Below, piece by piece: positions 2,807 to 56,405 of a stretch of DNA of 64,000 nt. How positions within the stretch are numbered: position 1 is the first letter of the stretch; each line of letters opens with the position of its first letter. The translations under genes were made by a program, and so were the position numbers. Below the pieces are notes generated by a model. The model searched no databases, was not told the DNA's origin, and was given only the letters and a program-made list of their open reading frames with translations. The DNA lies in the NCBI RefSeq assembly GCF_014640315.1, contig NZ_BMGS01000010.1, positions 124,001 through 188,000 of the forward strand, in the 5' to 3' direction. The DNA comes from Hymenobacter glacieicola. GTDB lineage: Bacteria > Bacteroidota > Bacteroidia > Cytophagales > Hymenobacteraceae.

Positions 2807-4480
2807 ATGCTCCCGTTTTCGCGCTGCGCCGCTGGTTCCGCTTTGCTCCTGACCGCCCTGCTGGCCGCCTGCTCGGGCCCTACCACTACCACCGATGCGC
2901 GCCGGGTGTTTCGCTACAACCAACCCGAGGGCCTTACTTCCCTCGACCCCGCCTTTGCCCGCAACCAGGCCAACACCTGGGCCGTGACCCAGCTCTACAA
3001 CGGCCTGGTAGAGCTGAATGACAGCCTCAAGCCCGGCCCTTCCCTGGCCCGCCGCTACGACATCAGCCCCGACGGCCGACGCTACACCTTCACCCTGCGG
3101 CCCAACGCGTTTTTCCACGATTCCGAAGTGTTTGCGGGCGGCAAGGGGCGGCGCGTAACGGCTCAGGACTTTGTGTATAGCTTCAAACGGCTGCTGGACG
3201 GGGGCACGGCCAGCCCCGGCGGCTGGATTTTCCGGGGTAAGGTGCTGGAAAACAGCCAGGGCGAGCCGTCGGATACCTGCTTTGTGGCCGTGAATGATTC
3301 CACGCTGCGCATTCATCTGCAGGAGCCATTCATTCCGTTTCTGGGCATCCTGACCATGCCCTACGCCTACGTCGTGCCGCGGGAGGCCGTGCAGAAATAC
3401 GGCAAGGACTTCCGGGAGCATCCGGTGGGGACGGGGCCGTTTCGGTTCAAGGAGTGGGACGAGGGCAATGCCATTATCTACCACCGCAACTCCACCTACT
3501 GGAAAAAGGACGCGCGAGGCCGGCAATTGCCCTACCTCGATGCTGTGCAGATCAGCTTTATCCAGGACCGCAAATCGGAGTTCCTGACCTTTATGCAAGG
3601 CAAGCTCGACTTCGTGAGCGGCATCCGGAGCGGCTCCCGCGACTTGATTCTGTACCCCGATGGTACCGTGCGGGAAGACTTCCGGGGCAAGTTTCGCTTC
3701 CAGAAAGTGCCCTACCTCAACACCGAGTACCTGGGCATGCAGCAGGACCCCGCTAACCTGCGCGGCGACAACGCCGCAACTGGCCGCGCCCTGCAGGACA
3801 AGCGCGTACGCCAGGCCCTGAACTACGCCCTCAACAAGCCCGAGTTTCTGGCTTACTTCCTGAACAACGTGGGCAAGCCCGGCAACTCGGGCTTCGTGCC
3901 GGCTTCCCTGCCTTCCTTTAGCGCCTCCCTGGTTCCCGGCTACACCTACCAGCCCGACAAGGCCCGGCAGTTGCTGAAGGCGGCGGGCTACGGCCCCGGC
4001 AAACCGCTGCGCCTACGCCTGAGTACCGTGGCCGAAACCAAGGAATACTGCGAGTACTACCAGAAAAAGTGGGCCGAAGTAGGCGTGCAGGTAGACATTG
4101 ACGTAAACCAGGCGGCCGCTCACGGGGAGCTGATCGACAACGGCCGCGCCGCTTTCTTCACCCGCAGCTGGCTCGGCGACTACCCCGACGCGGAAAACTA
4201 CTTGGCCCTGTTCTACAGCAAGAACTTCGCCCCGGCCGGCCCCAACAAAACCCACTTCAAAAGCCCTGCCTACGATAAACTGTATCAGCAGGCCAAACTG
4301 GAGCAGAACACCGAAAAGCGCTACGCCCTCTACCAGCAAATGGACCGGCTGGTGGTGGAAGAAAGCCCCGTTATTGCCGTGTACTACGATGAGGTAGTGC
4401 GTCTGACCCAAAACAACGTGCAGGGCCTCACGCCCAACCCCATGAACCAGCTGGTGCTGGAGCGAGTACAAAAGCAGTAA
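2807..4480 (+). CDS. ABC transporter substrate-binding lipoprotein, oligopeptide type (SBP_bac_5)
   Basis: Extracytoplasmic solute-binding protein of the DppA/OppA family (557 residues), which would present peptides or similar ligands to an ABC permease. The chosen start gives a lipoprotein signal peptide, hydrophobic LLLTALLAACSG with the lipobox cysteine near residue 22. The mature part shows SLDPAFARNQ near the N-terminus, RYTFTLRPNAFFHD, a VGTGPF segment typical of the family, KRVRQALNYALNKPEF and a C-terminal Tyr-rich block (ALYQQMDRLVVEESPVI). No permease or ATPase genes lie beside it, so it works with partners encoded elsewhere. It is divergent from the metallo-hydrolase gene. Confidence 0.9.
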   Translation: MLPFSRCAAGSALLLTALLAACSGPTTTTDARRVFRYNQPEGLTSLDPAFARNQANTWAVTQLYNGLVELNDSLKPGPSLARRYDISPDGRRYTFTLRPNAFFHDSEVFAGGKGRRVTAQDFVYSFKRLLDGGTASPGGWIFRGKVLENSQGEPSDTCFVAVNDSTLRIHLQEPFIPFLGILTMPYAYVVPREAVQKYGKDFREHPVGTGPFRFKEWDEGNAIIYHRNSTYWKKDARGRQLPYLDAVQISFIQDRKSEFLTFMQGKLDFVSGIRSGSRDLILYPDGTVREDFRGKFRFQKVPYLNTEYLGMQQDPANLRGDNAATGRALQDKRVRQALNYALNKPEFLAYFLNNVGKPGNSGFVPASLPSFSASLVPGYTYQPDKARQLLKAAGYGPGKPLRLRLSTVAETKEYCEYYQKKWAEVGVQVDIDVNQAAAHGELIDNGRAAFFTRSWLGDYPDAENYLALFYSKNFAPAGPNKTHFKSPAYDKLYQQAKLEQNTEKRYALYQQMDRLVVEESPVIAVYYDEVVRLTQNNVQGLTPNPMNQLVLERVQKQ

Positions 4481-4976: not shown

Positions 4977-6857
4977 TTACGAGCGGCGCGTTTTGCGGGG
5001 GCGCTTGGGCGAAATATCCGAGGCGCCGGTGCCGGGCTCCACGTCCGAATCGTCGGTGTCATTGGCGGCGGTAGTGTTGCGGCCGGCCTGGCGAGTCTGG
5101 GCTTCTTTCTCCTGGGCGGCTTTCATGGCATCGGCGAGGCGGGCACCCAGGCCGGAGGGCTTCTTGTCCTTGTTTTTGATCTTGTTGGCTTCCAGCTTGG
5201 CGCGCACCTTGGTGTCATCGACGAAGCGGCGGGTAAGGGCCTGCTGGCCCAGGGTTACCAGGTTCGAAACGAGGTAGTACCAGGTCAGACCGGCAGCGAA
5301 GTCGTTGAGTACGAAGAAGAACACCAGCGGCATGAGGTAGCTGTAGAACTTCATCGGGCCCTGCATGGCTGCCGGGTTGGCCTGGTTGCTCTGGTAGGTC
5401 ATGGCCAGGGTCGAAATCGTCATCAGCAAAGTAAACAGGCTGATGTGGTTACCCAGGAAAGGCACGTTGAAGGGCAGCTTAATCAGGTCGTCGTAGGTGC
5501 TCAGGTCCTTGGCCCACAGGAAATGCTCCTGCCGCAGCTCAATGGCGTTGGGGAAGAACTGGAACATGGCAAACAGAATCGGAATCGTCAGTAGCGTAGG
5601 AATACAGCCGCCGAGCGGGTTCACGCCCATACTCTGGTTCAGCTTCATCGTTTCCTGCTGCTGCTTCATCTGGTCATCGGGGTACTTCTCCTTGATGGCG
5701 TCCAGCTCGGGCTTCAGCACCTTCATCTTGGCCTGCGACTCGTAGGTTTTGTAGGTCAGGGGCCAGGTCACCAGCTTAATCAGCACCACCAGCAGGGCGA
5801 TGATGATGCCGTAGTTGCTGATGAATTTCTCCAGCACGTGGAACACGGGCAGAATCACGAACTGGTTAACCCAGCGGAACAAGCCCCAGCCCAGGTACAC
5901 GTTCCGGTCGAAGCCCGGCGTAACTTCCTTCAGAATGTTGTAGGCGTTCGGTCCGAAGTAGAAGCGGAAGTTGGCCTTGCCCTGCTGCACGTCGGCGGCC
6001 GGAATGGTCAGGGTAGAGCTCAGGGTTTTGAGGTAGGTCGTGTCCTCCAGATTTACCGTGGAGTTAAACTGCCCGTTGCTGAACTGGTTATCGGCAATGA
6101 TGCCGGCCACGAAGAAGTCGTGCTTGTGAGCGGCCCACTTCACGGGCTCCGTTATCTTTATTTCCTCCGGATTCTCGCTGGTCTCGGACAGGCTACCCGG
6201 GTCGTCGCTGGCCAGGTAGTGGTTGATGGTGGTGTGGTTGCGGTTCTGCTTGGCCACCTGCTCGGTCTGGCGCACCCGGTCGAGGAAGGTAAACGTCACC
6301 GGCTCCTGGGCCAGGGTGGCCGTCAGGTTGTTGAAGCGCAGCTTGTAGCCGACCTCAAAACTGTTAGCGGGCAACGTATATAGCTGCTCAATCTGGCCGC
6401 CGGCCACCTCGGCCACGAAGCGCAGCTCGTTGCTACCCCGGGGCTCAGCACGGAAGTACAGGTCGGAGAGCTTGATCTGGCGGCCGTCGGTAGTGCGGAA
6501 GCGCGTATCCAGCTGGGCGCTCTGGGCATCAAGCAAATCCAGGGGCTGGCCCCGGAAGGTCTTGTACTTGTTCAGACGCACGGCCTGGATCCGGCCTCCC
6601 TTTGACGAGAACGTAATGGTCAGGTTCTCGTTCTGCAGCTGCGTGGTTTGGGCCGTGCCCTGGGCGGCGGCGGCAAACGAGCCAAGCTGCTGCGCCAGTG
6701 CGGCCGAATCGGGGGCCGCTGGGGTAGTGCCCGGAGCAGCCGCGGCGGTTTTGGCGGGCTGCAGGGCAGGCTCAGGCTTCGGCTTGGGCGCGAACTGCAA
6801 GTAAATCAGAAGCAAGGCAGCCATCAGGAAGATGCCTATTGCTGAATTTCGGTCCAT
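4977..6857 (-). CDS. yidC: Membrane protein insertase YidC
   Basis: YidC/Oxa1-family insertase (626 residues) that inserts inner-membrane proteins alone or with SecYEG. The N-terminus MDRNSAIGIFLMAALLLIYLQF is the first membrane segment. A Pro/Ala linker and a periplasmic beta domain follow (about residues 75-340). The conserved C-terminal core then begins near LGWGLFRWVNQFVILPVFHVLEKFISN. It contains the cytoplasmic loop KMKVLKPELDAIKEKYPDDQ, the Gly/Pro-rich NPLGGCIPTLLTIPILFAMF and two later membrane helices. The tail after about residue 560 is basic and disordered (KNKDKKPSG ... SPKRPRKTRRS). Length fits the Gram-negative long form. pyrG is upstream on the same strand, as is common in Bacteroidota. 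Confidence 0.96.
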   Translation of the reverse strand: MDRNSAIGIFLMAALLLIYLQFAPKPKPEPALQPAKTAAAAPGTTPAAPDSAALAQQLGSFAAAAQGTAQTTQLQNENLTITFSSKGGRIQAVRLNKYKTFRGQPLDLLDAQSAQLDTRFRTTDGRQIKLSDLYFRAEPRGSNELRFVAEVAGGQIEQLYTLPANSFEVGYKLRFNNLTATLAQEPVTFTFLDRVRQTEQVAKQNRNHTTINHYLASDDPGSLSETSENPEEIKITEPVKWAAHKHDFFVAGIIADNQFSNGQFNSTVNLEDTTYLKTLSSTLTIPAADVQQGKANFRFYFGPNAYNILKEVTPGFDRNVYLGWGLFRWVNQFVILPVFHVLEKFISNYGIIIALLVVLIKLVTWPLTYKTYESQAKMKVLKPELDAIKEKYPDDQMKQQQETMKLNQSMGVNPLGGCIPTLLTIPILFAMFQFFPNAIELRQEHFLWAKDLSTYDDLIKLPFNVPFLGNHISLFTLLMTISTLAMTYQSNQANPAAMQGPMKFYSYLMPLVFFFVLNDFAAGLTWYYLVSNLVTLGQQALTRRFVDDTKVRAKLEANKIKNKDKKPSGLGARLADAMKAAQEKEAQTRQAGRNTTAANDTDDSDVEPGTGASDISPKRPRKTRRS

Positions 6858-7048
6858 TCAAGTAATGGTGAAGGCAAATAAAAGAGAGACGGGGCAGCGC
6901 CAGCAAAAACCGACGCTGCCGCCGCAAAGGTCGGATTTGTCAGGCGAATATTTTTCGCGGCGGCACTTTTGTCAGGTGGAAAGGTGAGATTGTGAGGTGG
7001 GGCAGAAGGAATATGAGTTAAGCGACAGCCAGAAAACGCCAAAAGAAG

Positions 7049-46779: not shown

Positions 46780-46893
46780 GGAATGTACAACCACGTGATG
46801 CTAATTGTCTGGTGGAGCAGGCAGCTTGAAATCAGGTTATGGTCCGCAGTTGTTTCAGCTTTTTCCTAAGCACATAAAAGCTGCCCCTATAAT

Positions 46894-46977
46894 GTAACGC
46901 GAAGCTCCGCTTCGCGACCCGCTTGAACGGCCCTCGGGTGTTGCTCAGGTCGGTCGCGAAGTGGAGCTTCGCGTTAC
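46894..46977. repeat. Palindromic repeat family C (GTAACGCGAAGCTCC arms)
   Basis: Arms 46894-46919 and 46952-46977 pair over 26 positions with one mismatch and a 32-base loop. It occupies much of the gap between the convergent GH31 and hydrolase genes, where no gene is seen. One clear copy in this window. Confidence 0.78.
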
Positions 46978-47050
46978 GGCTATAGCATTCGTGTGAGCTG
47001 ACTGAGTAAAACGACTTGGCGTCCAGCTCCTCTCTTCAGCGGAAGTGAGC

Positions 47051-48202
47051 CTACCCGATATTCTCCCTGATGTACGCATACACCTCCGGATTGCTAAGCA
47101 GGGTGCCGTGGTGCAGGCGCGGATACACGCGGGTAGTAATGAGCAAATCAGGCGGTGCGGCCGGGTCCCGGAAGATGCGGCCGCGGGCACTGCCAGCTCC
47201 TACCAAACCGTCGCCAAAGTACTCGTGTAGGGCGGAGTCAACCGTTTTCAGCAGGGAGCCGACCAGCACGTGGTAGCGCACGCCGGGCAGGGGCGGCACC
47301 ACCGTGCGGGGAGGAAACAGGTCGTCGGCGTGTGCATTCTGCCAGTCCTCATCGGTTAGGCGGGCAAAGCGCAGGTCCTTGATGCCGTTGCTGCGCTTGT
47401 CCAGTAGCCCGCTGATGGCCCGGGTGGGCCAGATGTTGATTTTCCGCAGAATCAGGGCCGTCAGGTGGCTGTTTTGCTCCAGGAAAGAGCCGTCGTTGGG
47501 CACACCCAGCAGAAACACGTCGCGCAGAGAAGGCAGCCAGCGTAAGGCCGGTTCGGGGGTGTTGTCGGCCGGACCAGAAGCTACGGGGGCTTCGGAAAAT
47601 AACTGCTCCTGTGCGGCGTAGTAGCCCGCTGAGCGAATAACCAGGCCCCCCATGCTGTGGCCAACCAATACCAGCTCGCCAACCGCGGCGGGAAACGTCT
47701 GGACTAACTCGGTGAGAAGCTGGTGGAGGCGGCGGCCGTTTTCAGAAATGTGCAGGCCGGAGTTGTAACGCACGTACAGGCAGTTTACGCCCAGCTCCCG
47801 CTGCAGACGGGGGCCAAAACGCACATCTTCCGGGCCGGCGCCGGTTTGCCAGATGATTTCGTCGCCCATCAGTCCGTGCAGGAAAACCACCGTTTTGCGA
47901 ACCTGTCCCTCCGGGGGCGGTTGCAGCCGTAGCTCGGCCACGCTTACATCAGCCTCGTAGCGACGGAAGCTCATCTGAATGGCCCGACGGTCGTGGCGGG
48001 CCGCCAGCTGGTCGCCGAACGCCCCGTTGAGCACCGGCAGCGTAAAATGCAGGTTCTCCTGACCAATGCGGTAGAGCAGGCCCGCCCCGTTAAACGGAGC
48101 CCGCGCGGCACGGCCCACGGCCGCCGCCGCCCGCCGCCAGCGCGAGCCCGGCTTGTCGGCGGGGCCTTCGGGGAGTTCGGCTGGGTCCTCAGGTTCAGTC
48201 AT
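47051..48202 (-). CDS. Alpha/beta hydrolase, lipase/PGAP1-like
   Basis: A 383-residue esterase or lipase-like protein. The start MTEPEDPAELPEG is followed by a basic, Ala/Arg-rich segment with no clear signal. The hydrolase domain has KTVVFLHGLMGDEIIWQ (oxyanion loop) and the nucleophile elbow LVLVGHSMGGLVIRSAGYYA. DVFLLGVPNDGS follows, and the candidate catalytic His is in VYPRLHHGTLLSNPEVYAYI at the C-terminus. It resembles bacterial proteins annotated as permease/PGAP1-like hydrolases. Substrate unknown. Confidence 0.8.
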   Translation of the reverse strand: MTEPEDPAELPEGPADKPGSRWRRAAAAVGRAARAPFNGAGLLYRIGQENLHFTLPVLNGAFGDQLAARHDRRAIQMSFRRYEADVSVAELRLQPPPEGQVRKTVVFLHGLMGDEIIWQTGAGPEDVRFGPRLQRELGVNCLYVRYNSGLHISENGRRLHQLLTELVQTFPAAVGELVLVGHSMGGLVIRSAGYYAAQEQLFSEAPVASGPADNTPEPALRWLPSLRDVFLLGVPNDGSFLEQNSHLTALILRKINIWPTRAISGLLDKRSNGIKDLRFARLTDEDWQNAHADDLFPPRTVVPPLPGVRYHVLVGSLLKTVDSALHEYFGDGLVGAGSARGRIFRDPAAPPDLLITTRVYPRLHHGTLLSNPEVYAYIRENIG

Positions 48203-48295
48203 GGGGGCAAAGGTAGGCCGCCCCGAAAACGTGGGGCGCCGCGGGAAGGTGCAAAAGTTTGCCGGTCCTTGGCGAGGTAGGCGCTTCGGCCCAAT

Positions 48296-48330
48296 AAAAA
48301 GCCCCACCCGGCGCAAAGCCAGGGCGGGGC
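48296..48330 (-). terminator. Terminator after the small T9SS-protein gene
   Basis: In minus-strand RNA, GCCCCGCCC pairs with GGGTGGGGC (one G-U) and is followed by TTTTTATT, the complement of 48296-48300 and beyond. It lies 25 bases past the stop at 48356. Confidence 0.75.
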
Positions 48331-48355
48331 CGTATGCGTGCTAGGCCAAAATGTG

Positions 48356-49288
48356 CTACTGCACCACCAGTTTACGCGAAATCAGACCGTCGGGGGTTTC
48401 CAGCTGCAGCAGGTACACGCCGCTGCGCTGCTCCCGCAAATCAACCAGGCGGCCGCGCGCGGCGCTCAGTGGGGCCTTACCCTGGCGCAGCACCACGCGG
48501 CCCGTTGCGTCGGTAACCGTGAAGGGCGCCGTGGACAGGGCCGCATCCGTCAGAGAGGCCAGGGAGAACTCGCCGGTAGAACTGGGGTTGGGGTACACCT
48601 GCAGCGCCGCTTCGGTGACCGGGTTGCGGGTGGCCGTAATGCTGCCCGTGAACTGAATATCGTCAACGAGCAGGACGGTGCCCTCGTGCAGGTTCTCGGC
48701 AATACCAGAATCGATTTCTATCAGCATCGAGTCGGGCGAGACACCAAGCGGCGTGTACTCAAAGGGCTGACTTACCAACGTGTAGGTAGCTGTGGGCGCC
48801 AGAATCAAGTCGCTCTGGGCAATTAACTGGGTGGTGCCGTTGATGTTACGGGTCAGCACAGCCCCGGCAAAGGCGGAATCGGCCCTGGCATCGGGGCCCG
48901 TGAGGCGGTACCAGAACTGCAGGCGGGCGGGCCGCGAGGTGTACGGCGTGCCCAGGCCCGTTGGGGAGCCCGTAACCAGCACCCCAGGCACGATCAACGG
49001 CCTGGTGTTGCCTATGTCAATGTTCGTTAGCTCGGCGGCAAACGGGCCCTGGCGCACCGTTGTAGATTTTTCGACAAAGCCAATATTAGGCAGTTCCTGC
49101 TGAACCAACGGTTCCAGAATGTCTTCGGTGGTAATCCAGCTCCGGGGCACTTCCCGCTGCAAGGTGTTGCGGATTTCCCAGGTATCGAGGTTGCCGTTGG
49201 GAACCGGGGTGGGCGTTTGGGCCAGCGCTGCCGTGCTGGCGGCCAGCACGCTTATTCCGGCCAAAAAAGAGCGTAGCAGATGGCGCAT
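48356..49288 (-). CDS. Exported protein with T9SS type A sorting domain
   Basis: A 310-residue secreted protein. Signal peptide MRHLLRSFLAGISVLAASTAALAQ is followed by a carbohydrate-binding-like beta domain (NGNLDTWEIRNTLQREVPRSW, PARLQFWYRL, EGTVLLVDDIQF). The C-terminal sorting domain runs from LQVYPNPSSTGEFSL to GVYLLQLETPDGLISRKLVVQ, as used by the type IX secretion system. The middle domain resembles PCMD-like or carbohydrate-binding extracellular modules. The start at 49288 follows the signal peptide; the frame extends further without purpose. Confidence 0.85.
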   Translation of the reverse strand: MRHLLRSFLAGISVLAASTAALAQTPTPVPNGNLDTWEIRNTLQREVPRSWITTEDILEPLVQQELPNIGFVEKSTTVRQGPFAAELTNIDIGNTRPLIVPGVLVTGSPTGLGTPYTSRPARLQFWYRLTGPDARADSAFAGAVLTRNINGTTQLIAQSDLILAPTATYTLVSQPFEYTPLGVSPDSMLIEIDSGIAENLHEGTVLLVDDIQFTGSITATRNPVTEAALQVYPNPSSTGEFSLASLTDAALSTAPFTVTDATGRVVLRQGKAPLSAARGRLVDLREQRSGVYLLQLETPDGLISRKLVVQ

Positions 49289-49381
49289 AACGTCAAAAAA
49301 AGAAGTGAGTGAAATGGAATGCAGGCAATTTAAAAGATTCAATAGGATAGTAGCGGGCTGGGCTGGGCTAATTTCAAAACG

Positions 49382-50227
49382 CTACCCCACATTCTGCCGG
49401 GCAGAGGCGGGCGGGGCGGCGAGCAGACCCAGTAAACTGCCGGTGAGCAGACCGCCCACGTGGGCAGCATTATCGGTGGTATGAGCTTGCAGGCCGCCGG
49501 CTAAGCTGCTGGCCAGCAAATAGAACACGAACAACAACATGGTATAGCGCCCGGTCCGGGTAAAGGTTGCGGGCCGCCGCACCAGGGTAGCCAGCAGTAA
49601 GCCGTACCACCCGAAAATAGCGCCGGAGGCTCCCACCGAATTCAGGCCCTGGGTGTGCCAGTACCAGCTCAGCAAGCTACCGCCCACCCCGCTCAGCACA
49701 TAGCCCACCAGCAGCCGCCGCCCACCCACGAAGCCCTCGGCCAGCAGCCCCAGAAACACCAGGGAAGCCATGTTCAGCACCAAGTGGGCCGCGCCGCCGT
49801 GCACGAAGCAGCTAGTGAGCAGGCGCCAGGGCTGGGTAGGCGTCAGGGGCGAAAAGTTGGAGCCCCACTGCACCAGGTCGGTGCCGGCTGGCTGCCAGGC
49901 ATTCACGCCCGTGGCCACCATAGCCAGGTACACCAGCACGTTCAGCCAGAGCAGCAGGGGCGTTACCCGGTAGCCGGGCCGGGGCCAGCTCACACCCCGC
50001 AGGGCCCGCCAGGCCAGGGTACCCGCGCCAGGCTCGGGACCGGGCGCTTCAGTAGGGTGCGGCGCGGGGCCAGCGGGCAATTCGGCCGGAATCAGACCGC
50101 GCCGCTGCAGTTCGCGCACGGCGGCCTGGCCCACCGCCGCCGGGTACTGGTGGGCGTGCTGAGCCAGGTAAAGCAGCTCAGCATCCGTTTTCTGGGCAAA
50201 TAGGGCGGCGGGGTCGGGGGCAGACAT
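49382..50227 (-). CDS. Rhomboid family intramembrane serine protease with N-terminal extension
   Basis: A 281-residue membrane protease. Six membrane segments follow a cytoplasmic extension of about 80 residues. The catalytic Ser is in SVGASGAIFGWYG, the His in NAAHVGGLLTG, and the conserved HGGAAHLVLNMASL motif is present. The first 45 residues (APDPAALFAQKTDAELLYLA, then QHAHQYPAAVGQAAVRELQR and RG) are similar to the start of the protein encoded just upstream (50339-51187), so the two share a small helical module. It would cut membrane-anchored substrates; no substrate is known. Confidence 0.9.
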   Translation of the reverse strand: MSAPDPAALFAQKTDAELLYLAQHAHQYPAAVGQAAVRELQRRGLIPAELPAGPAPHPTEAPGPEPGAGTLAWRALRGVSWPRPGYRVTPLLLWLNVLVYLAMVATGVNAWQPAGTDLVQWGSNFSPLTPTQPWRLLTSCFVHGGAAHLVLNMASLVFLGLLAEGFVGGRRLLVGYVLSGVGGSLLSWYWHTQGLNSVGASGAIFGWYGLLLATLVRRPATFTRTGRYTMLLFVFYLLASSLAGGLQAHTTDNAAHVGGLLTGSLLGLLAAPPASARQNVG

Positions 50228-50338
50228 ACGCAGGAAATACAACGGGGGCGCCCCGGCTACGAAACGCCGGCGCGGCCCCGTGGGCGCGTCATAAACCCTG
50301 CCAGCCCCCGCCTACCTGACAGGATTGCGCTCCTCGGG

Positions 50339-51187
50339 CTACAGCTCCGTAATGTTGCCGCGCAGGGGCTGCTTGCGCTGGTAGTGGCCGCGCAGTTCCT
50401 CGGCCAGGCCGGTGGCTTCCTGGTGCAGCTTCTCCTCCTGCGGGTCCATCAGCTGCATCTGGGCCTCGTAGCGCGACTTGAACACCTGCAGGGAGCTGCG
50501 GCGCAGCTTCAGGCCCTGTTGCATCAGGTTCAGGCGCTCTTCCATGGTGGCGGTTAGGTGCTGGTTGTAGGCCTTGGCCCGCATAAACCAGGCAATGCGC
50601 TCCTGGGTCAGGTCAACCTGGCCGGGAAATACGGCCGTTACGGCGCCGGTGCGGGCCTGGCTGGTGAGGTGGGCTGCCGCGTTTTCCGCCAGCCAGTAGC
50701 GCCGGGCCATGCGCAGGTAGCGGCCCGTGGCGGTGGTATCGGCGCGGTCGGCGGCCGGGAGCAGTCGGCGCAACTCGGCCACCTGGGCGGCGGTTTTGGC
50801 CTCGAAATCGGGCAGGCGTTCAGTTTTTACGGCTTCCAGCACAATGGGCTCGGCCTTTTTGGCGGCTACCGGGGCCGATGTGGCGGCGGGGGCGGTGGGG
50901 GAGTGCAGGCCCCACCAGCCCAACCCGAGCACCGCGGCGGCCAGCACCCCGGCCGGCCACCACCGGGCCATGCCGGCAGCTGCGGGCTCCGGCTCGTGGT
51001 AGACGGGTTCCGGCGTGGCGGCGGGCCCTGGGGCAGGGGTAGGGGGCAGGCTAGTCCCGCGGCGGCGCAGCTCGCGGCCAGCTTCGGCTACCACGGAAGG
51101 ATGGTATAACTCCGGGTGCTGCACCAGAAAAAGCAGTTCCTCGGTTGGTTTTTGCAGGAAAGAGTCGGGAGCAGATGAGGCGGCCAT
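50339..51187 (-). CDS. Single-pass membrane protein sharing the rhomboid N-terminal module
   Basis: A 282-residue protein of unknown family. The start (SAPDSFLQKPTEELLFLVQH, then PELYHPSVVAEAGRELRRRG) matches the N-terminal module of the rhomboid protease encoded 111 bases downstream. A Pro/Ala linker leads to one membrane segment (WWPAGVLAAAVLGLGWWGL, about 80-98). The rest is a long soluble helical region with AAQVAELRRLLPAADRADTT, then LTATMEERLNLMQQGLKLRR and an acidic-basic end. It looks like a single-pass inner-membrane protein, and could be a substrate or adapter of the protease. Confidence 0.72.
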   Translation of the reverse strand: MAASSAPDSFLQKPTEELLFLVQHPELYHPSVVAEAGRELRRRGTSLPPTPAPGPAATPEPVYHEPEPAAAGMARWWPAGVLAAAVLGLGWWGLHSPTAPAATSAPVAAKKAEPIVLEAVKTERLPDFEAKTAAQVAELRRLLPAADRADTTATGRYLRMARRYWLAENAAAHLTSQARTGAVTAVFPGQVDLTQERIAWFMRAKAYNQHLTATMEERLNLMQQGLKLRRSSLQVFKSRYEAQMQLMDPQEEKLHQEATGLAEELRGHYQRKQPLRGNITEL

Positions 51188-51343
51188 GCCGAAGTAATAA
51201 ACGGATACGGGTGTAAAATCTCCCCAAATTGGTAAAAAACACTCGGACTACCTCGACCTGCTTCCCAACGCCGCCGCGGGGCTTGCGTATAGCCAAAGCC
51301 GGGCCCCACCCGCCCGTTTCTTTCACCGTTAAGCTCCTTGCTC

Positions 51344-51649
51344 ATGGATACTCCTCGCGAAGAACCCCTGGACGCCAGCACCCTGCCAAACCGGCCCGAT
51401 GCCCTCTCCGACGATACTCAGCCCGAAGGCCGCATCTTTCCTGGCAGCCACGACACCGGCCTTAACGCCGATGACAACTCTGGCAGCGGCGGCACCGAAG
51501 GCGGCCAGGCTATCAGCGGCGCCCGGGTACGCTCCGGTGCTCCCAACTACGACGCGCCCGGCAATGCCCAGGACGGCGACGTAGGCGGTAACACAGCCAG
51601 CGCCGGTACCGGCGTATCGGGCGGCGAAACCGGTAAAGTAAACCTCTAA
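51344..51649 (+). CDS. Disordered Gly/Asp-rich small protein
   Basis: A 101-residue hydrophilic protein: MDTPREEPLDASTLPNRPD, then IFPGSHDTGLNADDNSGSGG and a Gly/Ala/Asp-rich end. It has no hydrophobic core, cysteines or signal peptide, so it is likely intrinsically disordered. It is 28 bases from a second gene of the same style, suggesting an operon. Such pairs may relate to desiccation or stress, but nothing in the sequence proves it. Confidence 0.65.
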   Translation: MDTPREEPLDASTLPNRPDALSDDTQPEGRIFPGSHDTGLNADDNSGSGGTEGGQAISGARVRSGAPNYDAPGNAQDGDVGGNTASAGTGVSGGETGKVNL

Positions 51650-51677
51650 CCTTAGCTTCCACCCTACTTTTTCCATC

Positions 51678-51899
51678 ATGGCTAACGACCAAAACACGCC
51701 CCAGCCGGACCAGCAAGGCGGCAACTCCGCTACCCCTACTACCCCCAAGCAACCCGCTACTACCCAAGAAGAACTGTTGAACGACAGCGGCGCCGGTATC
51801 CGGGGCGGCTACGGCGACAGTGACCAGACCAATGGCCTGGAAGGTGGCGGCCAAACCAAGTCAGACCGCTCCGATATCCAGCAGTCGGCCCAGGAATAG
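51678..51899 (+). CDS. Disordered Gln/Gly-rich small protein
   Basis: A 73-residue hydrophilic protein, MANDQNTPQPDQQGGNSATP, with ELLNDSGAGIRGGYGDSDQT as its most structured-looking segment. No known domain. It follows the gene at 51344 closely and shares its low-complexity, acidic character, so the two are probably co-expressed. Function unknown. Confidence 0.62.
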   Translation: MANDQNTPQPDQQGGNSATPTTPKQPATTQEELLNDSGAGIRGGYGDSDQTNGLEGGGQTKSDRSDIQQSAQE

Positions 51900-51941
51900 T
51901 CTGCGCCAGGCAGCGTCTGGAAAGCCGAAAGCTGCTGCTTG

Positions 51942-52013
51942 TCATTCCGAGTGAAATGAGGAAGGTGGGGTAGGCTCCGGAGCCTGCCTCACCTTCCTCG
52001 TTTCTGCTTGATG
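51942..52013. repeat. Degraded palindromic repeat, family A
   Basis: It begins GTCATTCCGAG like the perfect palindrome at 4508. The inner arms 51959-51979 and 51980-52000 pair over 21 positions with two mismatches and no loop; the outer parts no longer match well. No gene is seen in 51900-52179. Confidence 0.65.
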
Positions 52014-52179
52014 CCCAGTATAACGGCCCAAACCGCACGTGTCAGGCCCTACTCAACACCCCGGCTTAACCCCTAGTTGACCTGTTTCAAGCGTTACTAG
52101 CCCTTACGAGGCGGGCCGCTTCGGAAAGGGCACCTGGGGGTTGCCCTGTTGTTGGGGTTTGCGGTGTACTTTGCTGTTG

Positions 52180-53391
52180 ATGAGAAAAAAACTCTGCTGG
52201 TTGCTGGGCTGCCTGCTGCTACCCCTGGCCCACGGGCAGGCCCAAAACCCCTTGCGCCGGCTGCTGCAATCTGATTCCGTGTTGGCGCCTGTGCTCCAGG
52301 AAGCGGCCGCCCACCGGGTCCAGATCTTGTACACCCAAATCCGCCGCGACTCCCAAGGTCGGCCGCACTTTCGCAGCTACGGCTACCGGCTGCGCCCGCG
52401 GGAGTACTTCTATCCGGCCAGCACCATCAAGCTCCCGACTGCCGTACTGGCCCTGGAAAAACTGCACGCCCTCAGGTTGCAGGTGCCGGGTCTGAGCAGC
52501 GAATCGCCCCTGCGCATCGACTCGGCCGCCCGGGGGCAAACGCGGGTTGTGCGCGACGCCAGCAGCCCCACCGGGCGGGCCAGCGTAGCCCACTACGTGC
52601 GCAAGGTGCTGCTTGTAAGTGACAATGATGCTTTTAACCGGCTCTATGAATTTGTGGGGCCGGCTGGGCTGGTGGCCGGGCTGCGGCGCCACGGCCTGCG
52701 CCACACGCTGGTGCGCCACCGCCTTTCCGTCGGCGACCAGGACTCCACGGCCCGGCAAACCAATCCGCTGGCTTTTTTCGCTGATACCAGCCTTACCCGC
52801 CCCCTGTACCTGCAACCCGCCGCTACCTATTCTGGGCCCTGGCCCCGGCAGGCGCGGCGGGGCTGGGGGGTAGGTCGGGCCCACCTGCAGGGTGCTGTGC
52901 GGGTAGAGGCGCCCCTCGATTTTCACCCCAAGAACACTACTTCCCTGCCCGACTTGCAGCGCACCCTGCGGGCCGTACTTTTCCCCGAAACGGAGCCCGC
53001 GCGGCGGCGCTTCCAGCTGGCCCCCGCCGACTACGCCCTGCTGCGCGACTACCTGCACCGGCTGCCCCGCGAAAGTGACGCGCCCCGCTACCCGGCAACT
53101 GAGTACCCGGACAACTACGCCAAATTTCTGCTGGCGGGCGGACCCGCGGGCCCGCTCCCGCCCGGTGTGCAGATCTACAACAAAATAGGCCAGGCCTACG
53201 GCTTCCTGATTGATAACGCCTACATCACCGACCCGGCGCACGGGGTAGAGTTTCTGCTGAGCGCCGTGGTGTACGTAAACCAGGACGGGGTGCTCACCGA
53301 CGACCAGTACGAGTACGATACGGTGGGCCTGCCCTTCCTACGGCGCCTGGGCCAGCGGGTATACCAGCACGAGGTGCAGCGCCGCAAATAA
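52180..53391 (+). CDS. Exported serine hydrolase of the class A beta-lactamase type
   Basis: A 403-residue protein with signal peptide MRKKLCWLLGCLLLPLAHGQAQ. The fold motifs are SxxK in YPASTIKLPTAVLALEKL and SDN in VLLVSDNDAFNRLYEFVG. The third motif, normally K(S/T)G, reads KIG in YNKIGQAYGFLIDNAY. Length is greater than a usual class A enzyme because of an extended middle region. It may be a penicillin-binding-like or esterase-type relative rather than a true beta-lactamase. It stands 83 bases before a D,D-dipeptidase gene on the same strand, so both may act on peptidoglycan stems. Confidence 0.8.
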   Translation: MRKKLCWLLGCLLLPLAHGQAQNPLRRLLQSDSVLAPVLQEAAAHRVQILYTQIRRDSQGRPHFRSYGYRLRPREYFYPASTIKLPTAVLALEKLHALRLQVPGLSSESPLRIDSAARGQTRVVRDASSPTGRASVAHYVRKVLLVSDNDAFNRLYEFVGPAGLVAGLRRHGLRHTLVRHRLSVGDQDSTARQTNPLAFFADTSLTRPLYLQPAATYSGPWPRQARRGWGVGRAHLQGAVRVEAPLDFHPKNTTSLPDLQRTLRAVLFPETEPARRRFQLAPADYALLRDYLHRLPRESDAPRYPATEYPDNYAKFLLAGGPAGPLPPGVQIYNKIGQAYGFLIDNAYITDPAHGVEFLLSAVVYVNQDGVLTDDQYEYDTVGLPFLRRLGQRVYQHEVQRRK

Positions 53392-53474
53392 GCCGAAAAG
53401 GTAACGGTAGCCCGTCGTTGAGCGTAAGAGCGTCCATTATTCCTGTCCAGGTACGGCTCCGGGCCCTTGTTATA

Positions 53475-54107
53475 ATGTCTGTTAATCCGTTTGGACTCGT
53501 TCTTATTAGCTGCCCCGATCAGTACCACCAGCAAGTAGCTTCGGATGCGGAGCAGCAGCTCGTGAATCTAGTGGATCTGATTCCGGATCTGGTGCTTGAT
53601 ATTCGCTACGCTACCCCCCGCAACTTGCTGGGCGAGGCGGTGTACCCCGCGGCCAAGGCGTATGTGCGGCGGCCCGTGGCCGAGGCCCTGCAGCGGGTGC
53701 AACTGGCCCTGGCGCGGCACGGCTTGGGTTTATGCGTGTACGATGCCTACCGCCCCTACAGCGTGACGGTGCGCTTCTACGAGCACCTGCGCGACGAAAA
53801 CTTCGCCGCTCCTCCCTGGCGCGGCTCCCGGCACAACCGCGGCTGCTCCGTGGATGTGGGTCTGGTGGAGCAAGCCACCGGCCGGCCCGTGCCGCTGCCC
53901 ACCGATTTTGATGAGCTGACCCCAGCCTCGCACACGAACTTCAGCGAGTTGCCCAACTACGTCCTCATGAACCGCATCATTCTGCTGGCCGCCATGAAGG
54001 GCCAGGGGTTTATCAACTACGCCAAGGAGTGGTGGCACTTTGACTTCCACCGCTGGGCCGAGTTCGACCTACTGGACTTACCTTTCGAGGCCCTGGACAG
54101 GCGGTGA
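53475..54107 (+). CDS. D-alanyl-D-alanine dipeptidase (VanX/DdpX type)
   Basis: Zinc D,D-dipeptidase of 210 residues (peptidase M15D). The conserved motifs are VYDAYRPYSV, SRHNRGCSVDVGLV (SxHxxGxxxD, with zinc-ligand His and Asp) and EWWHFDFHRW (catalytic Glu and third zinc His). It hydrolyses D-Ala-D-Ala, either for recycling or to deny substrate to glycopeptides. The ATG at 53475 is chosen because the frame before it lacks domain sequence. No signal peptide is certain. No vanH/vanA genes are near, so a housekeeping dipeptide role is likelier. Confidence 0.92.
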   Translation: MSVNPFGLVLISCPDQYHQQVASDAEQQLVNLVDLIPDLVLDIRYATPRNLLGEAVYPAAKAYVRRPVAEALQRVQLALARHGLGLCVYDAYRPYSVTVRFYEHLRDENFAAPPWRGSRHNRGCSVDVGLVEQATGRPVPLPTDFDELTPASHTNFSELPNYVLMNRIILLAAMKGQGFINYAKEWWHFDFHRWAEFDLLDLPFEALDRR

Positions 54108-54629
54108 GTTAGCCATTCAGGGAGTCGGGGCCCGATTTGGTAGGTAGAGTTGGGTTAGGGCGTAGGGCTGAACTGACGAACAAAACGTACTGAACCCCCA
54201 AATAAACCGCCCCTCATCCTGAGCTTGCAAAGGACCTTATCACGCCCCAAAAGTCGTTGCTACGATACTTGTGCAGACGTGGCAAGGTCCTTTGCAAGCT
54301 CAGGATGAGGGGCGGTTTGACAATGGTCCGCCTTACGTGCCATCCTGAAGCTGTGAACAGTTGAATAAAAGTCGCTCATGCTGAGTGATTTGCGCTTCAA
54401 GCAGAGGTAAAGCAACTCCCTCGAATCATTGAGTTAGCGTAGCAATGTCAGGTAAATGAACTGCTTCGGCTCCGCTTCAGGCACAGCATGCTCGGCATGC
54501 TGAGTCTGTGTAGCGCATAAGCCCTGCCGGTTCACACGACCGAGCTAACTCACTGAATGACCGAATCAGCACCGCACTAAATCATCAAATCACTGAATCA
54601 CTAATTCACCGCCTCGTAACTTCGCGGGG
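54108..54629. other. Repeat-rich gap before the GHL10 gene
   Basis: The gap contains the palindrome at 54204-54318, then assorted short repeats: TGTGAACAGTTGA at about 54353 (near the family B edge tag), CATGCTGAG variants and GGCATGCTGAG at about 54492. No gene is seen. Confidence 0.6.
54204..54318. repeat. Palindromic repeat family D (perfect 35-bp arms)
   Basis: Arms 54204-54238 and 54284-54318 are exact complements with a 45-base spacer. The arm starts AAACCGCCCCTCATCCTGAG. It is 115 bases long, with no coding capacity. Confidence 0.85.
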
Positions 54630-56405
54630 ATGTTTCGATTACTTGCCGCCGGCCGTTTCCTGTTTGCCCTAGTTCTGAGTGTGTATTGCCTGGTAGCCAG
54701 CCAGCCGGCTGGTGCCGCCGATGGGCCGCCCAAGCGCGAGCTGCGTGGGGTCTGGATTGCCACGGTGGAGAATATTGACTGGCCCAGCTCCCGCAGCCTC
54801 ACCCCGGAGCAGCAGCGCCGCGAGTACCGCCGCATGCTCGATGACCACCAGCGCAGTGGCATCAATGCCTTGTTTGTGCAGGTGCGCCCCGCCTCCGATG
54901 CCTTTTATCAGAGCAGCCTGGAGCCCTGGAGCAAGTGGCTGACGGGCCAGCAGGGCAAGGCGCCCACGCCCTACTATGACCCCTTGCCCTTTCTGATTGA
55001 AGAGGCCCACAACCGGGGCATGGAATTTCACGCCTGGTTTAACCCCTACCGCGCCACCATGGATACCGTGACGCGGCGGCTGGCGCCCACCCACCCCTAC
55101 CGCCAGCACCCCGAGTGGTTTCTGCGCTACTCCGGCAAGCTGCTCTACAACCCCGGCCTGCCCGAAGTGCGCCAGTATATCAGCGAGGTGATTCTGGACG
55201 TAGTGCGCCGCTACGACATCGACGGAGTGCACTTCGACGACTACTTCTATCCTTACCCCGAGGCGGGGCAGGTAATTCACGATGAGGACGCTTTTGCCCG
55301 CTTCAACCCCGATAACCTCAAGCTAGCCGACTGGCGCCGCCAGAACGTAAACACCCTGATTCAGGAGTTGCACGGCACCATTCACCAGACCAAGCGCTGG
55401 GTCAAATTCGGCATTTCGCCCTTCGGAGTGTGGCGCAACCAAAGCACCGACCCCAACGGCTCGGCCACCAAAGCCTTCCAGGGCTACGATGGCCTGTATG
55501 CCGACGCGCTGGAGTGGCTGCGTCAGGGTTGGGTTGATTACGTGCTGCCCCAGCTCTACTGGAGCACCGGCTTCCGGGTGGCGCAGTACCCCGTGCTGGT
55601 GGAGTGGTGGGCCCGCAACGGCAACGGCCGCCACCTCTACATCGGGCACGGGGCCTACCGCATGTCGGAAAGCACGAAGTCGGATACGGTGTGGCGCAAC
55701 CCGCGCGAGCTGCCCCGGCAAGTGCGCCTGAACCGCACCTTCCCCACGGAGGTCAGCGGCAGCGTGTTCTTTAGCTCGAAGTCGCTCATGGCCAACGTGC
55801 TGCACACGACCGATTCGCTGCGCCAGCACGAGTTTCGCTACCCCGCTCTGGTGCCCACCATGCCCTGGCTCGATGCCGTGCCCCCACGCCCCGCCCAGAA
55901 CCTGACCGTTACCACGGAGGCGGGCGCCAACACCCTGGCCTGGCAGCCCGGCCCCGTAGCCGCCGATGGCGACCAGGCCGCGTACTACGCCCTCTACCGC
56001 TTCGCCGACGACCAGACGCCTACCCCCGACGACCCCCGCAACCTGCTTACCGTATTTCGGCCCCAGTCCGGCCGCAGGCTGGCTTTCACGGATACCACCG
56101 CCCGACCCGGGCGCGCCTACGCCTACTACCTCACCGCCTTCGACCGCCTGCACAATGAAAGCCGGCCAATCTCGGTGCGCACCACCGGCCGCGCCGCCGA
56201 GGTAGTAGTTGCCCAAACGGCCCCGCCGGAGTCCGTGCCCTCGCCTAACACGACTCCTGCCCCAAGCCCCGCCCCGCCGGCTCGGCCTACGCCCCGCCCG
56301 CCAGTGTCGCGCCCAACTACCACGGTCAACACCCCAACCAAGGTCAAAGTCAAAACCAAGCCTAGGCGCCGCGGCCTGTTAGAACGCATATTCGGCCGGC
56401 GGTAA
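54630..56405 (+). CDS. GHL10 family glycosidase with fibronectin-type III domain
   Basis: An exported protein of 591 residues. Signal peptide ends near PAGAADG. The glycosyl-hydrolase-like 10 domain (YngK type) begins RELRGVWIATVENIDWPSS, with NALFVQVRPASDAFYQS, GMEFHAWFNPYRA, YDIDGVHFDDYFYPYP (candidate acidic residues) and VDYVLPQLYWSTG. A fibronectin-like domain follows at about 415-515 (RPAQNLTVTTEAGANTLAWQ). The last 70 residues are Pro/Thr-rich and very basic at the end (KVKVKTKPRRRGLLERIFGRR). It probably acts on peptidoglycan or another glycan in the envelope. TAACTTCG ends 5 bases before the ATG. Confidence 0.88.
   Translation: MFRLLAAGRFLFALVLSVYCLVASQPAGAADGPPKRELRGVWIATVENIDWPSSRSLTPEQQRREYRRMLDDHQRSGINALFVQVRPASDAFYQSSLEPWSKWLTGQQGKAPTPYYDPLPFLIEEAHNRGMEFHAWFNPYRATMDTVTRRLAPTHPYRQHPEWFLRYSGKLLYNPGLPEVRQYISEVILDVVRRYDIDGVHFDDYFYPYPEAGQVIHDEDAFARFNPDNLKLADWRRQNVNTLIQELHGTIHQTKRWVKFGISPFGVWRNQSTDPNGSATKAFQGYDGLYADALEWLRQGWVDYVLPQLYWSTGFRVAQYPVLVEWWARNGNGRHLYIGHGAYRMSESTKSDTVWRNPRELPRQVRLNRTFPTEVSGSVFFSSKSLMANVLHTTDSLRQHEFRYPALVPTMPWLDAVPPRPAQNLTVTTEAGANTLAWQPGPVAADGDQAAYYALYRFADDQTPTPDDPRNLLTVFRPQSGRRLAFTDTTARPGRAYAYYLTAFDRLHNESRPISVRTTGRAAEVVVAQTAPPESVPSPNTTPAPSPAPPARPTPRPPVSRPTTTVNTPTKVKVKTKPRRRGLLERIFGRR

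What the first reader, a model, noticed from the sequence alone, without database searches (positions are those of the whole stretch)
49382..51187. Rhomboid protease and its neighbour share an N-terminal module
The first 45 residues of the rhomboid protease and of the adjacent single-pass membrane protein are clearly alike: QKTDAELLYLAQH against QKPTEELLFLVQH, and AVRELQRRG against AGRELRRRG. The neighbour has one membrane helix and a long soluble helical domain, the layout of a rhomboid substrate. A shared cytoplasmic docking module next to a membrane protease suggests a protease-substrate or protease-adapter pair.
Basis: partly seen in the sequence, partly recalled or inferred. Interest (0 to 1): 0.72.

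Follow-up and report, generated by a model that had tools for sequence, protein, structure and literature searches.

The report
Rhomboid and neighbour share recurrent hairpin
A membrane-cutting enzyme and the gene beside it in Hymenobacter bacteria really do share a small front-end module and nearly always travel together, but the same module also sits on several unrelated kinds of membrane protein, so it does not mark the neighbour as the enzyme's target.

Summary
The first ~45 residues of the rhomboid (window 49382-50227, -) and of its neighbour (50339-51187, -) are homologous: 22 of 43 identical, local score 93 against at most 48 in 2000 shuffles. Similarity stops there. Both models fold the module as the same helix hairpin. 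The pair is real: 65 of the 66 Hymenobacter genomes listed have a neighbour match, and it precedes the rhomboid on the same strand in 59 of 61 named loci. The rhomboid is GlpG-like with its catalytic motifs in 58 of 58 copies.

The module also opens unrelated Bacteroidota membrane proteins (RDD family, a 3-4-TM family, 8-TM, 2-TM); no rhomboid core was found in ~1.5 kb flanks of 40 loci with a module match. The window's genome has four copies. In two genomes the neighbour is unlinked and lacks the module, though the rhomboid keeps its own. Eight sister-genus genomes have module-rhomboids but no neighbour match beyond the module. Best reading: a genus-specific rhomboid-partner pair with an unnamed accessory hairpin; substrate status is unproven.

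The parts
49382..50227 (-). GlpG-like rhomboid intramembrane serine protease with an N-terminal hairpin module; the listed ORF starts at an upstream TTG (50242)
   Evidence: Pfam Rhomboid 1e-28; GASG and AHxGG motifs in 58 of 58 homologues of the named loci; AlphaFold2 pLDDT 88.9; Foldseek to GlpG, best E 1.3e-4
50086..50215 (-). N-terminal hairpin module of the rhomboid (helices at model residues 14-22 and 29-41; the model lacks the initial Met)
50339..51187 (-). Neighbour: single-pass membrane protein with the same N-terminal module and a C-terminal helical bundle; no Pfam or NCBIfam match at E 1
51042..51169 (-). N-terminal hairpin module of the neighbour (helices at residues 15-23 and 30-42)
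50906..50959 (-). Predicted single membrane helix of the neighbour (residues 77-94)
50393..50803 (-). Helical bundle of the neighbour (residues 129-265); its side of the membrane is uncertain, periplasmic favoured
   Evidence: orientation
50228..50338 (-). Gap of 111 bp between neighbour stop and rhomboid ATG; the median over 56 homologous pairs is also 111 bp
51338..51649 (+). Divergent small acidic protein; a similar gene flanks the module-rhomboid in four sister-genus loci that lack the neighbour (similarity seen by eye)

Best explanation
The two genes form a conserved, probably co-transcribed pair: an intact GlpG-like rhomboid protease and a single-pass membrane protein with a helical-bundle domain. 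Both begin with the same ~45-residue helix hairpin. That hairpin is not a rhomboid-specific docking tag. It is a recurrent, so far uncatalogued (in Pfam) accessory module of Bacteroidota membrane proteins, probably a small cytoplasmic handle for protein contacts (inferred). The rhomboid had it before Hymenobacter split from its sister genus. The neighbour family got its module once, most simply at this site in the Hymenobacter ancestor by copying the 5' end of the rhomboid gene or recruiting another module gene. Most likely mechanism (inferred, not shown): the neighbour is an accessory partner of the rhomboid that presents or senses envelope proteins with its bundle, rather than a classical substrate. 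The module helps co-localise the two but can be dispensed with.
For: Homology of the module and the same hairpin in both models. Neighbour upstream of the rhomboid on the same strand in 59 of 61 loci, two of them cut by contig ends; gap under 250 bp in 52 of 56 measured pairs. A neighbour match in 65 of 66 Hymenobacter genomes listed, against module-region matches only in the 8 sister-genus genomes (my count of its rows), although those rhomboids carry the module and 4 of 4 sister loci inspected keep the same flanks. Module on RDD proteins (3 of 10 scanned) and on 3-4-TM, 8-TM and 2-TM proteins; 26 of 296 phylum genomes match, including genomes whose rows built the profile. Module tree: neighbour 59 of 59 in one clade (support 0.98), rhomboid 57 of 58 (0.84), sister rhomboids 8 of 8, 3-4-TM family 9 of 9; mean identity of neighbour modules is 0.46 to sister rhomboids, 0.42 to Hymenobacter rhomboids, 0.32 to the 3-4-TM family.
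Against: Contact between the two proteins was not tested. No own-partner signal: module identity between neighbour and rhomboid is 45.6% within a genome and 45.9% between genomes (56 pairs). At DNA level the 5' ends are only weakly alike (7 and 10 of 300 shuffles reach the score), so a tandem copy is not proved. The cytoplasmic side of the neighbour's module is not settled by charge: in 15-residue flanks the C side has more K/R in 29 of 58 and fewer in 9, which leans against it. G064 has the rhomboid and no neighbour match beyond the module. The 59 of 61 is biased: the scan used one peptide pattern from the module, so module-less or diverged neighbours could not enter it.
Confidence: 0.5

Rival explanations
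1. Protease and substrate: the rhomboid binds the neighbour through paired cytoplasmic modules and cuts its membrane helix.
For: Conserved pairing; intact catalytic motifs; the neighbour has one predicted membrane helix; 15-residue charge flanks lean to the N-out/C-in orientation that rhomboids prefer (29 of 58 against 9), though then the modules could not meet.
Against: Module present on unrelated proteins and on sister rhomboids without a neighbour. Two genomes keep an unlinked neighbour without the module. With both modules in the cytoplasm the neighbour is N-in/C-out, opposite to the preferred rhomboid substrate (PMC7232013, passages).
Confidence: 0.17
2. Shared by descent only: the module was copied between neighbouring genes, or both drew on a common module, and the two proteins have no functional link; adjacency is inherited.
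For: Single-origin neighbour modules; no own-partner signal; unlinking of the neighbour is tolerated in G021 and G546, and G064 has no neighbour match.
Against: The pair stays together in loci where no match to the window's two downstream genes was seen at E 1e-3 (for example L169, L171, L173-L176), which points to selection for linkage, though those genes might only have diverged.
Confidence: 0.25
3. The module is a targeting or stability element (for example for membrane insertion or turnover) and says nothing about partners.
For: It sits at the N-terminus of very different membrane proteins (17 of 18 shown; more).
Against: One copy in the window's genome is C-terminal (L138), hard to square with an insertion signal; the neighbour gene persists without it in two genomes.
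Confidence: 0.15

Closest known systems
GlpG-type bacterial rhomboid proteases
   Same: Six-helix rhomboid core, serine and histidine motifs, best structural match to E. coli GlpG (TM-score 0.77 normalised by the target)
   Different: The N-terminal part is a short helix hairpin that matches no Pfam model; far below the NCBIfam GlpG cut-off (39.2 of 250 bits)
YqgP of Bacillus subtilis (rhomboid with a cytosolic N-terminal domain, substrate MgtE, FtsH adaptor)
   Same: A rhomboid with an extra cytosolic N-terminal part that serves in partner handling there and may do so here (PMC7231995, passages including part of the abstract)
   Different: YqgP's domain is a larger globular metal-binding domain; here it is a hairpin of about 30 residues shared with other membrane proteins
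SHOCT-like short accessory domains (recalled; seen in no call)
   Same: A very short helical element added to ends of unrelated proteins
   Different: The Pfam scans of module-bearing proteins gave no such match
Periplasmic four-helix-bundle sensor domains (Tar, Tsr, PcaY_PP, Adeh_2942)
   Same: Similar arrangement of the neighbour's bundle (VIA Z 9.3, 113 residues, rmsd 3.1 to 6s18)
   Different: No Foldseek match better than E 0.63; designed and spectrin/talin bundles score alike, so this is a common arrangement only

Membership tests
Active rhomboid protease | Rhomboid Pfam domain PF01694 | tested here: met
   E 1e-28, 100.8 bits against cut-off 22.6
Active rhomboid protease | GxSG serine and partner histidine | tested here: met
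   GASG and AHxGG in 58 of 58 rhomboids of the loci; both residues invariant in alignments of 26 and 48
Active rhomboid protease | GlpG fold | tested here: met
   AlphaFold2 pLDDT 88.9; Foldseek probability 1.00 to GlpG entries
Active rhomboid protease | Proteolytic activity | not testable with these tools
   needs a cleavage assay
GlpG equivalog | NCBIfam TIGR04239 score of 250 bits | tested here: not met
   39.2 bits
Rhombosortase | NCBIfam TIGR03902 score of 84 bits | tested here: not met
   46.5 bits
Rhomboid substrate (neighbour) | Single membrane helix with N-out/C-in orientation | tested here: inconclusive
   One helix in the model. K/R counts of 15-residue flanks lean to C-in (29 of 58 against 9), those of 8 residues to N-in (21 against 14); the two module-less copies have 3 K/R before and 0 after the helix, N-in
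Rhomboid substrate (neighbour) | Cleavage that depends on the rhomboid | not testable with these tools
   needs an experiment
Rhomboid-specific docking module | Module restricted to rhomboids and their partners | tested here: not met
   On RDD and other membrane proteins; 0 of 40 loci with a module match have a rhomboid core in ~1.5 kb flanks, positive control 58 of 61. The core profile comes from this rhomboid family, so a very distant rhomboid could be missed
Catalogued Pfam domain (module) | Match of the module to a Pfam model | tested here: not met
   No model over the module at its cut-off in the proteins; one MarR_2 overlap at E 0.072, 13.7 bits against 27
Periplasmic four-helix-bundle sensor domain (neighbour) | Homology or clear fold match | tested here: inconclusive
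   VIA Z 9.6 and below, close to unrelated and designed bundles

The most novel reading that the evidence does not exclude
The hairpin is a general homotypic or common-partner handle by which Bacteroidota membrane proteins of unrelated families are gathered; in Hymenobacter a rhomboid and a dedicated bundle protein both use it, making the neighbour a rhomboid adaptor with a type II topology, a kind of rhomboid regulation that I do not recall being described in bacteria.
Probability: 0.2. Interest if true: 0.6.

Novelty: new variant of a known kind. Interest (0 to 1): 0.36.

Why it matters
The roles and partners of most bacterial rhomboids are unknown. A gene that has stayed beside an active-looking rhomboid through nearly a whole genus is a testable lead for a partner. 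Separately, an uncatalogued hairpin that recurs on unrelated membrane proteins of a major phylum deserves a family model and a binding test.

Tried and rejected
Rejected: chance similarity. Rejected: module exclusive to the pair. Rejected: ongoing gene conversion between the two modules (identity 45.6% within, 45.9% between genomes; separate clades). Weak and without a null: partial correlation 0.27 between module distances. Not established: tandem copying of the rhomboid 5' end.

Led nowhere: NCBIfam for the neighbour; viral contigs (one pattern match, no relative); PDB by sequence with module or neighbour profile (best E 0.23 and 0.7); Foldseek of the neighbour; Rfam over 46800-53500 (none). 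A C-terminal extension that resembles a TonB plug by eye occurs in 4 of 58 neighbour rows by regular expression; Pfam gives E 0.16 in 1 of 4 long homologues scanned, below the cut-off. The first rhomboid check of the module loci used a profile that included the module and matched the module itself; it was repeated with the core only. Paper searches: rhomboids in Hymenobacter (one unrelated paper, listing and start of abstract); rhomboids in Bacteroidetes (listings, nothing on point); topology (listing). I make no claim of absence from print beyond these four searches.

Limits of the counts: A6 left out L178 (split frame), L180, L186 (uncertain starts) and L199 (no neighbour) of 61 loci; A8 used 47 of 58 rhomboid rows. 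In several genome searches only the best candidates were scored, and one search's row list was cut, so its counts are lower bounds. Narrower profiles found fewer genomes: 17 of 118 in the order, 10 of 247 in the phylum; the module is recurrent, not ubiquitous. One search searched with one module-derived pattern. Some of the 40 loci rest on weak module matches (for example L224 and L225), and several are from one genus.

Full report
WHAT IS THERE. Two genes lie head to tail on the minus strand: the neighbour (50339-51187) and, after a gap of 111 bp, the rhomboid (ATG at 50227, end 49382). The rhomboid matches Pfam Rhomboid at 1e-28; the neighbour matches nothing in Pfam or NCBIfam at E 1. Their first ~45 residues are homologous: 22 of 43 identities, E 8e-7, and a local score of 93 against at most 48 in 2000 shuffles. 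Past residue 47 the similarity ends (75 of 1000 shuffles reach the observed score).

STRUCTURE. AlphaFold2 with alignments of 58 and 48 sequences gives mean pLDDT 85.1 for the neighbour and 88.9 for the rhomboid. The module is a two-helix hairpin in both (residues 15-23 and 30-42; 14-22 and 29-41). The neighbour then has a low-confidence linker, one helix at 77-94, and a helical bundle at 129-265. The rhomboid model has six long helices after the linker and matches GlpG by Foldseek (best E 1.3e-4, probability 1.00). Its GASG and AHxGG motifs are present in 58 of 58 homologues. The neighbour's bundle has no clear fold relative: Foldseek gives nothing better than E 0.63, and VIA lists sensor domains, designed proteins and cytoskeletal bundles at similar Z.

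A REAL PAIR. In 25 genomes of the window's genus (own plus 24), all have the module-rhomboid (in G010 as two overlapping frames) and 24 have a neighbour match shortly upstream of it (in G017 in two frames); G021 matches only through the rhomboid's module. Over 61 loci from named records, all titled Hymenobacter, 59 have the neighbour upstream of the rhomboid on the same strand, two of them cut by contig ends. The exceptions are L193 and L199. That scan used a pattern from the module, so it could not find module-less neighbours. Gaps were measured in 56 pairs: median 111 bp, 52 under 250 bp, one of 516 and three of about 1.15 kb. In a draw of 150 family genomes, a neighbour match reaches beyond the module in 65 of the 66 Hymenobacter listed, one of them (G546) without the module; in the 8 genomes of the sister genus (g19) the listed matches cover only the module region (my count of its rows). 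In some Hymenobacter loci no match to the window's two downstream genes was seen while the pair stayed together.

NOT A RHOMBOID TAG. A profile of 27 modules finds a third copy in the window's own genome, on a protein with several membrane segments (E 2.5e-6; protein). A wider profile finds four copies in this genome; the fourth is at the C-terminus of a 3-TM protein. Elsewhere in Bacteroidota the module opens RDD-family proteins (L112, L114, L119), a family with 3-4 membrane segments (L099-L102, L113, L131, L132), an 8-segment protein (L135), a 4-segment protein (L136) and small 2-segment proteins (L115, L134, L210, L211, L213). Of 18 such proteins shown, 17 have a hydrophobic segment and 17 carry the module at the N-terminus. 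With a wide profile, 26 of 296 phylum genomes match at E 0.001 or better, 3 of them Hymenobacter and several the genomes whose rows made the profile; narrower profiles found 17 of 118 order and 10 of 247 phylum genomes. A rhomboid-core profile finds no rhomboid in the flanks of 40 loci with a module match, while it finds one in 58 of the 61 pair loci.

HISTORY. Sister-genus rhomboids carry the module (8 of 8) and, in the 4 loci inspected, keep a secreted-protein gene downstream and a divergent acidic gene upstream, with no neighbour between (similarity by eye). Neighbour modules form one clade (59 of 59, support 0.98), as do sister rhomboids (8 of 8), the 3-4-TM family (9 of 9) and 57 of 58 Hymenobacter rhomboids (0.84). 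The neighbour thus seems to have got its module once. It is nearer to rhomboid modules (identity 0.42-0.46) than to the 3-4-TM module (0.32), which fits copying from the adjacent rhomboid gene, but the short length and weak DNA similarity leave this open. Loss of the neighbour in the sister genus is the alternative.

A NATURAL TEST. In G021 and G546 the rhomboid keeps its module but follows a gene that looks by eye like a LytTR-type regulator, while the neighbour lies on another contig beside a gene that I recognise as murQ-like from a motif, and starts with a different N-terminus, without the module. A MAG contig titled Hymenobacter sp. (L193) has two neighbour copies on the same contig as a murQ-like gene and no rhomboid found there; the complete copy has the module, the other is cut by the contig end. 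The shared settings of G021 and G546 suggest one relocation, so this counts as a single event. It shows that the neighbour gene can persist without both the module and adjacency. The module-less copies have three K/R before and none after the helix, favouring N-in/C-out. G064 has the rhomboid but no neighbour match beyond the module.

MECHANISM. Shown: homology, hairpin prediction, conserved pairing, recurrence of the module on other proteins, intact catalytic motifs. Inferred: co-transcription, cytoplasmic side of the neighbour's module, any contact. [quoted passage not shown] If the two modules meet in the cytoplasm, the neighbour has the opposite orientation; if the neighbour is N-out, the modules cannot meet. 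Charge counts are mixed: 8-residue flanks lean to N-in (21 against 14 of 58), 15-residue flanks to C-in (29 against 9). I therefore favour an accessory partner over a substrate, at moderate confidence. The nearest published idea known to me is YqgP, whose cytosolic N-terminal domain assists MgtE cleavage and FtsH hand-over (PMC7231995, passages including part of the abstract).

VERDICT. The sequence observation is confirmed. The pair deserves attention as a rhomboid-partner candidate, but the shared module is a recurrent accessory element and gives little support for a protease-substrate relation.

Noticed in passing
L234 2109-2810; L237 around 3028-3696; L193 2-475 and 570-1418: In a few Hymenobacter the neighbour lies near a murQ-like gene instead; two copies lack the module, and one contig has two neighbour copies in tandem.
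   Followed up: partly
L142 4998-6122; also L002, L004, L010: Some neighbour homologues carry a C-terminal extension that looks by eye like a TonB-plug piece; Pfam support is weak (E 0.16 for L142).
   Followed up: partly
L138 1489-2067 (-), own genome contig C7: The hairpin module sits at the C-terminus of a 3-TM protein instead of the N-terminus.
   Followed up: no
window 52141-56405: Three neighbouring genes of hydrolase families: a beta-lactamase-family protein, a D-Ala-D-Ala dipeptidase-family protein and a GHL10 glycosyl hydrolase-like protein.
   Followed up: no
L178 4851-6079: The neighbour is split over two frames in Hymenobacter persicinus (G017 likewise); a frameshift or an assembly error.
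   Followed up: no
L157, L159, L161 about 5850-7040: About 1.15 kb separates neighbour and rhomboid in these three species; the contents were not identified.
   Followed up: no
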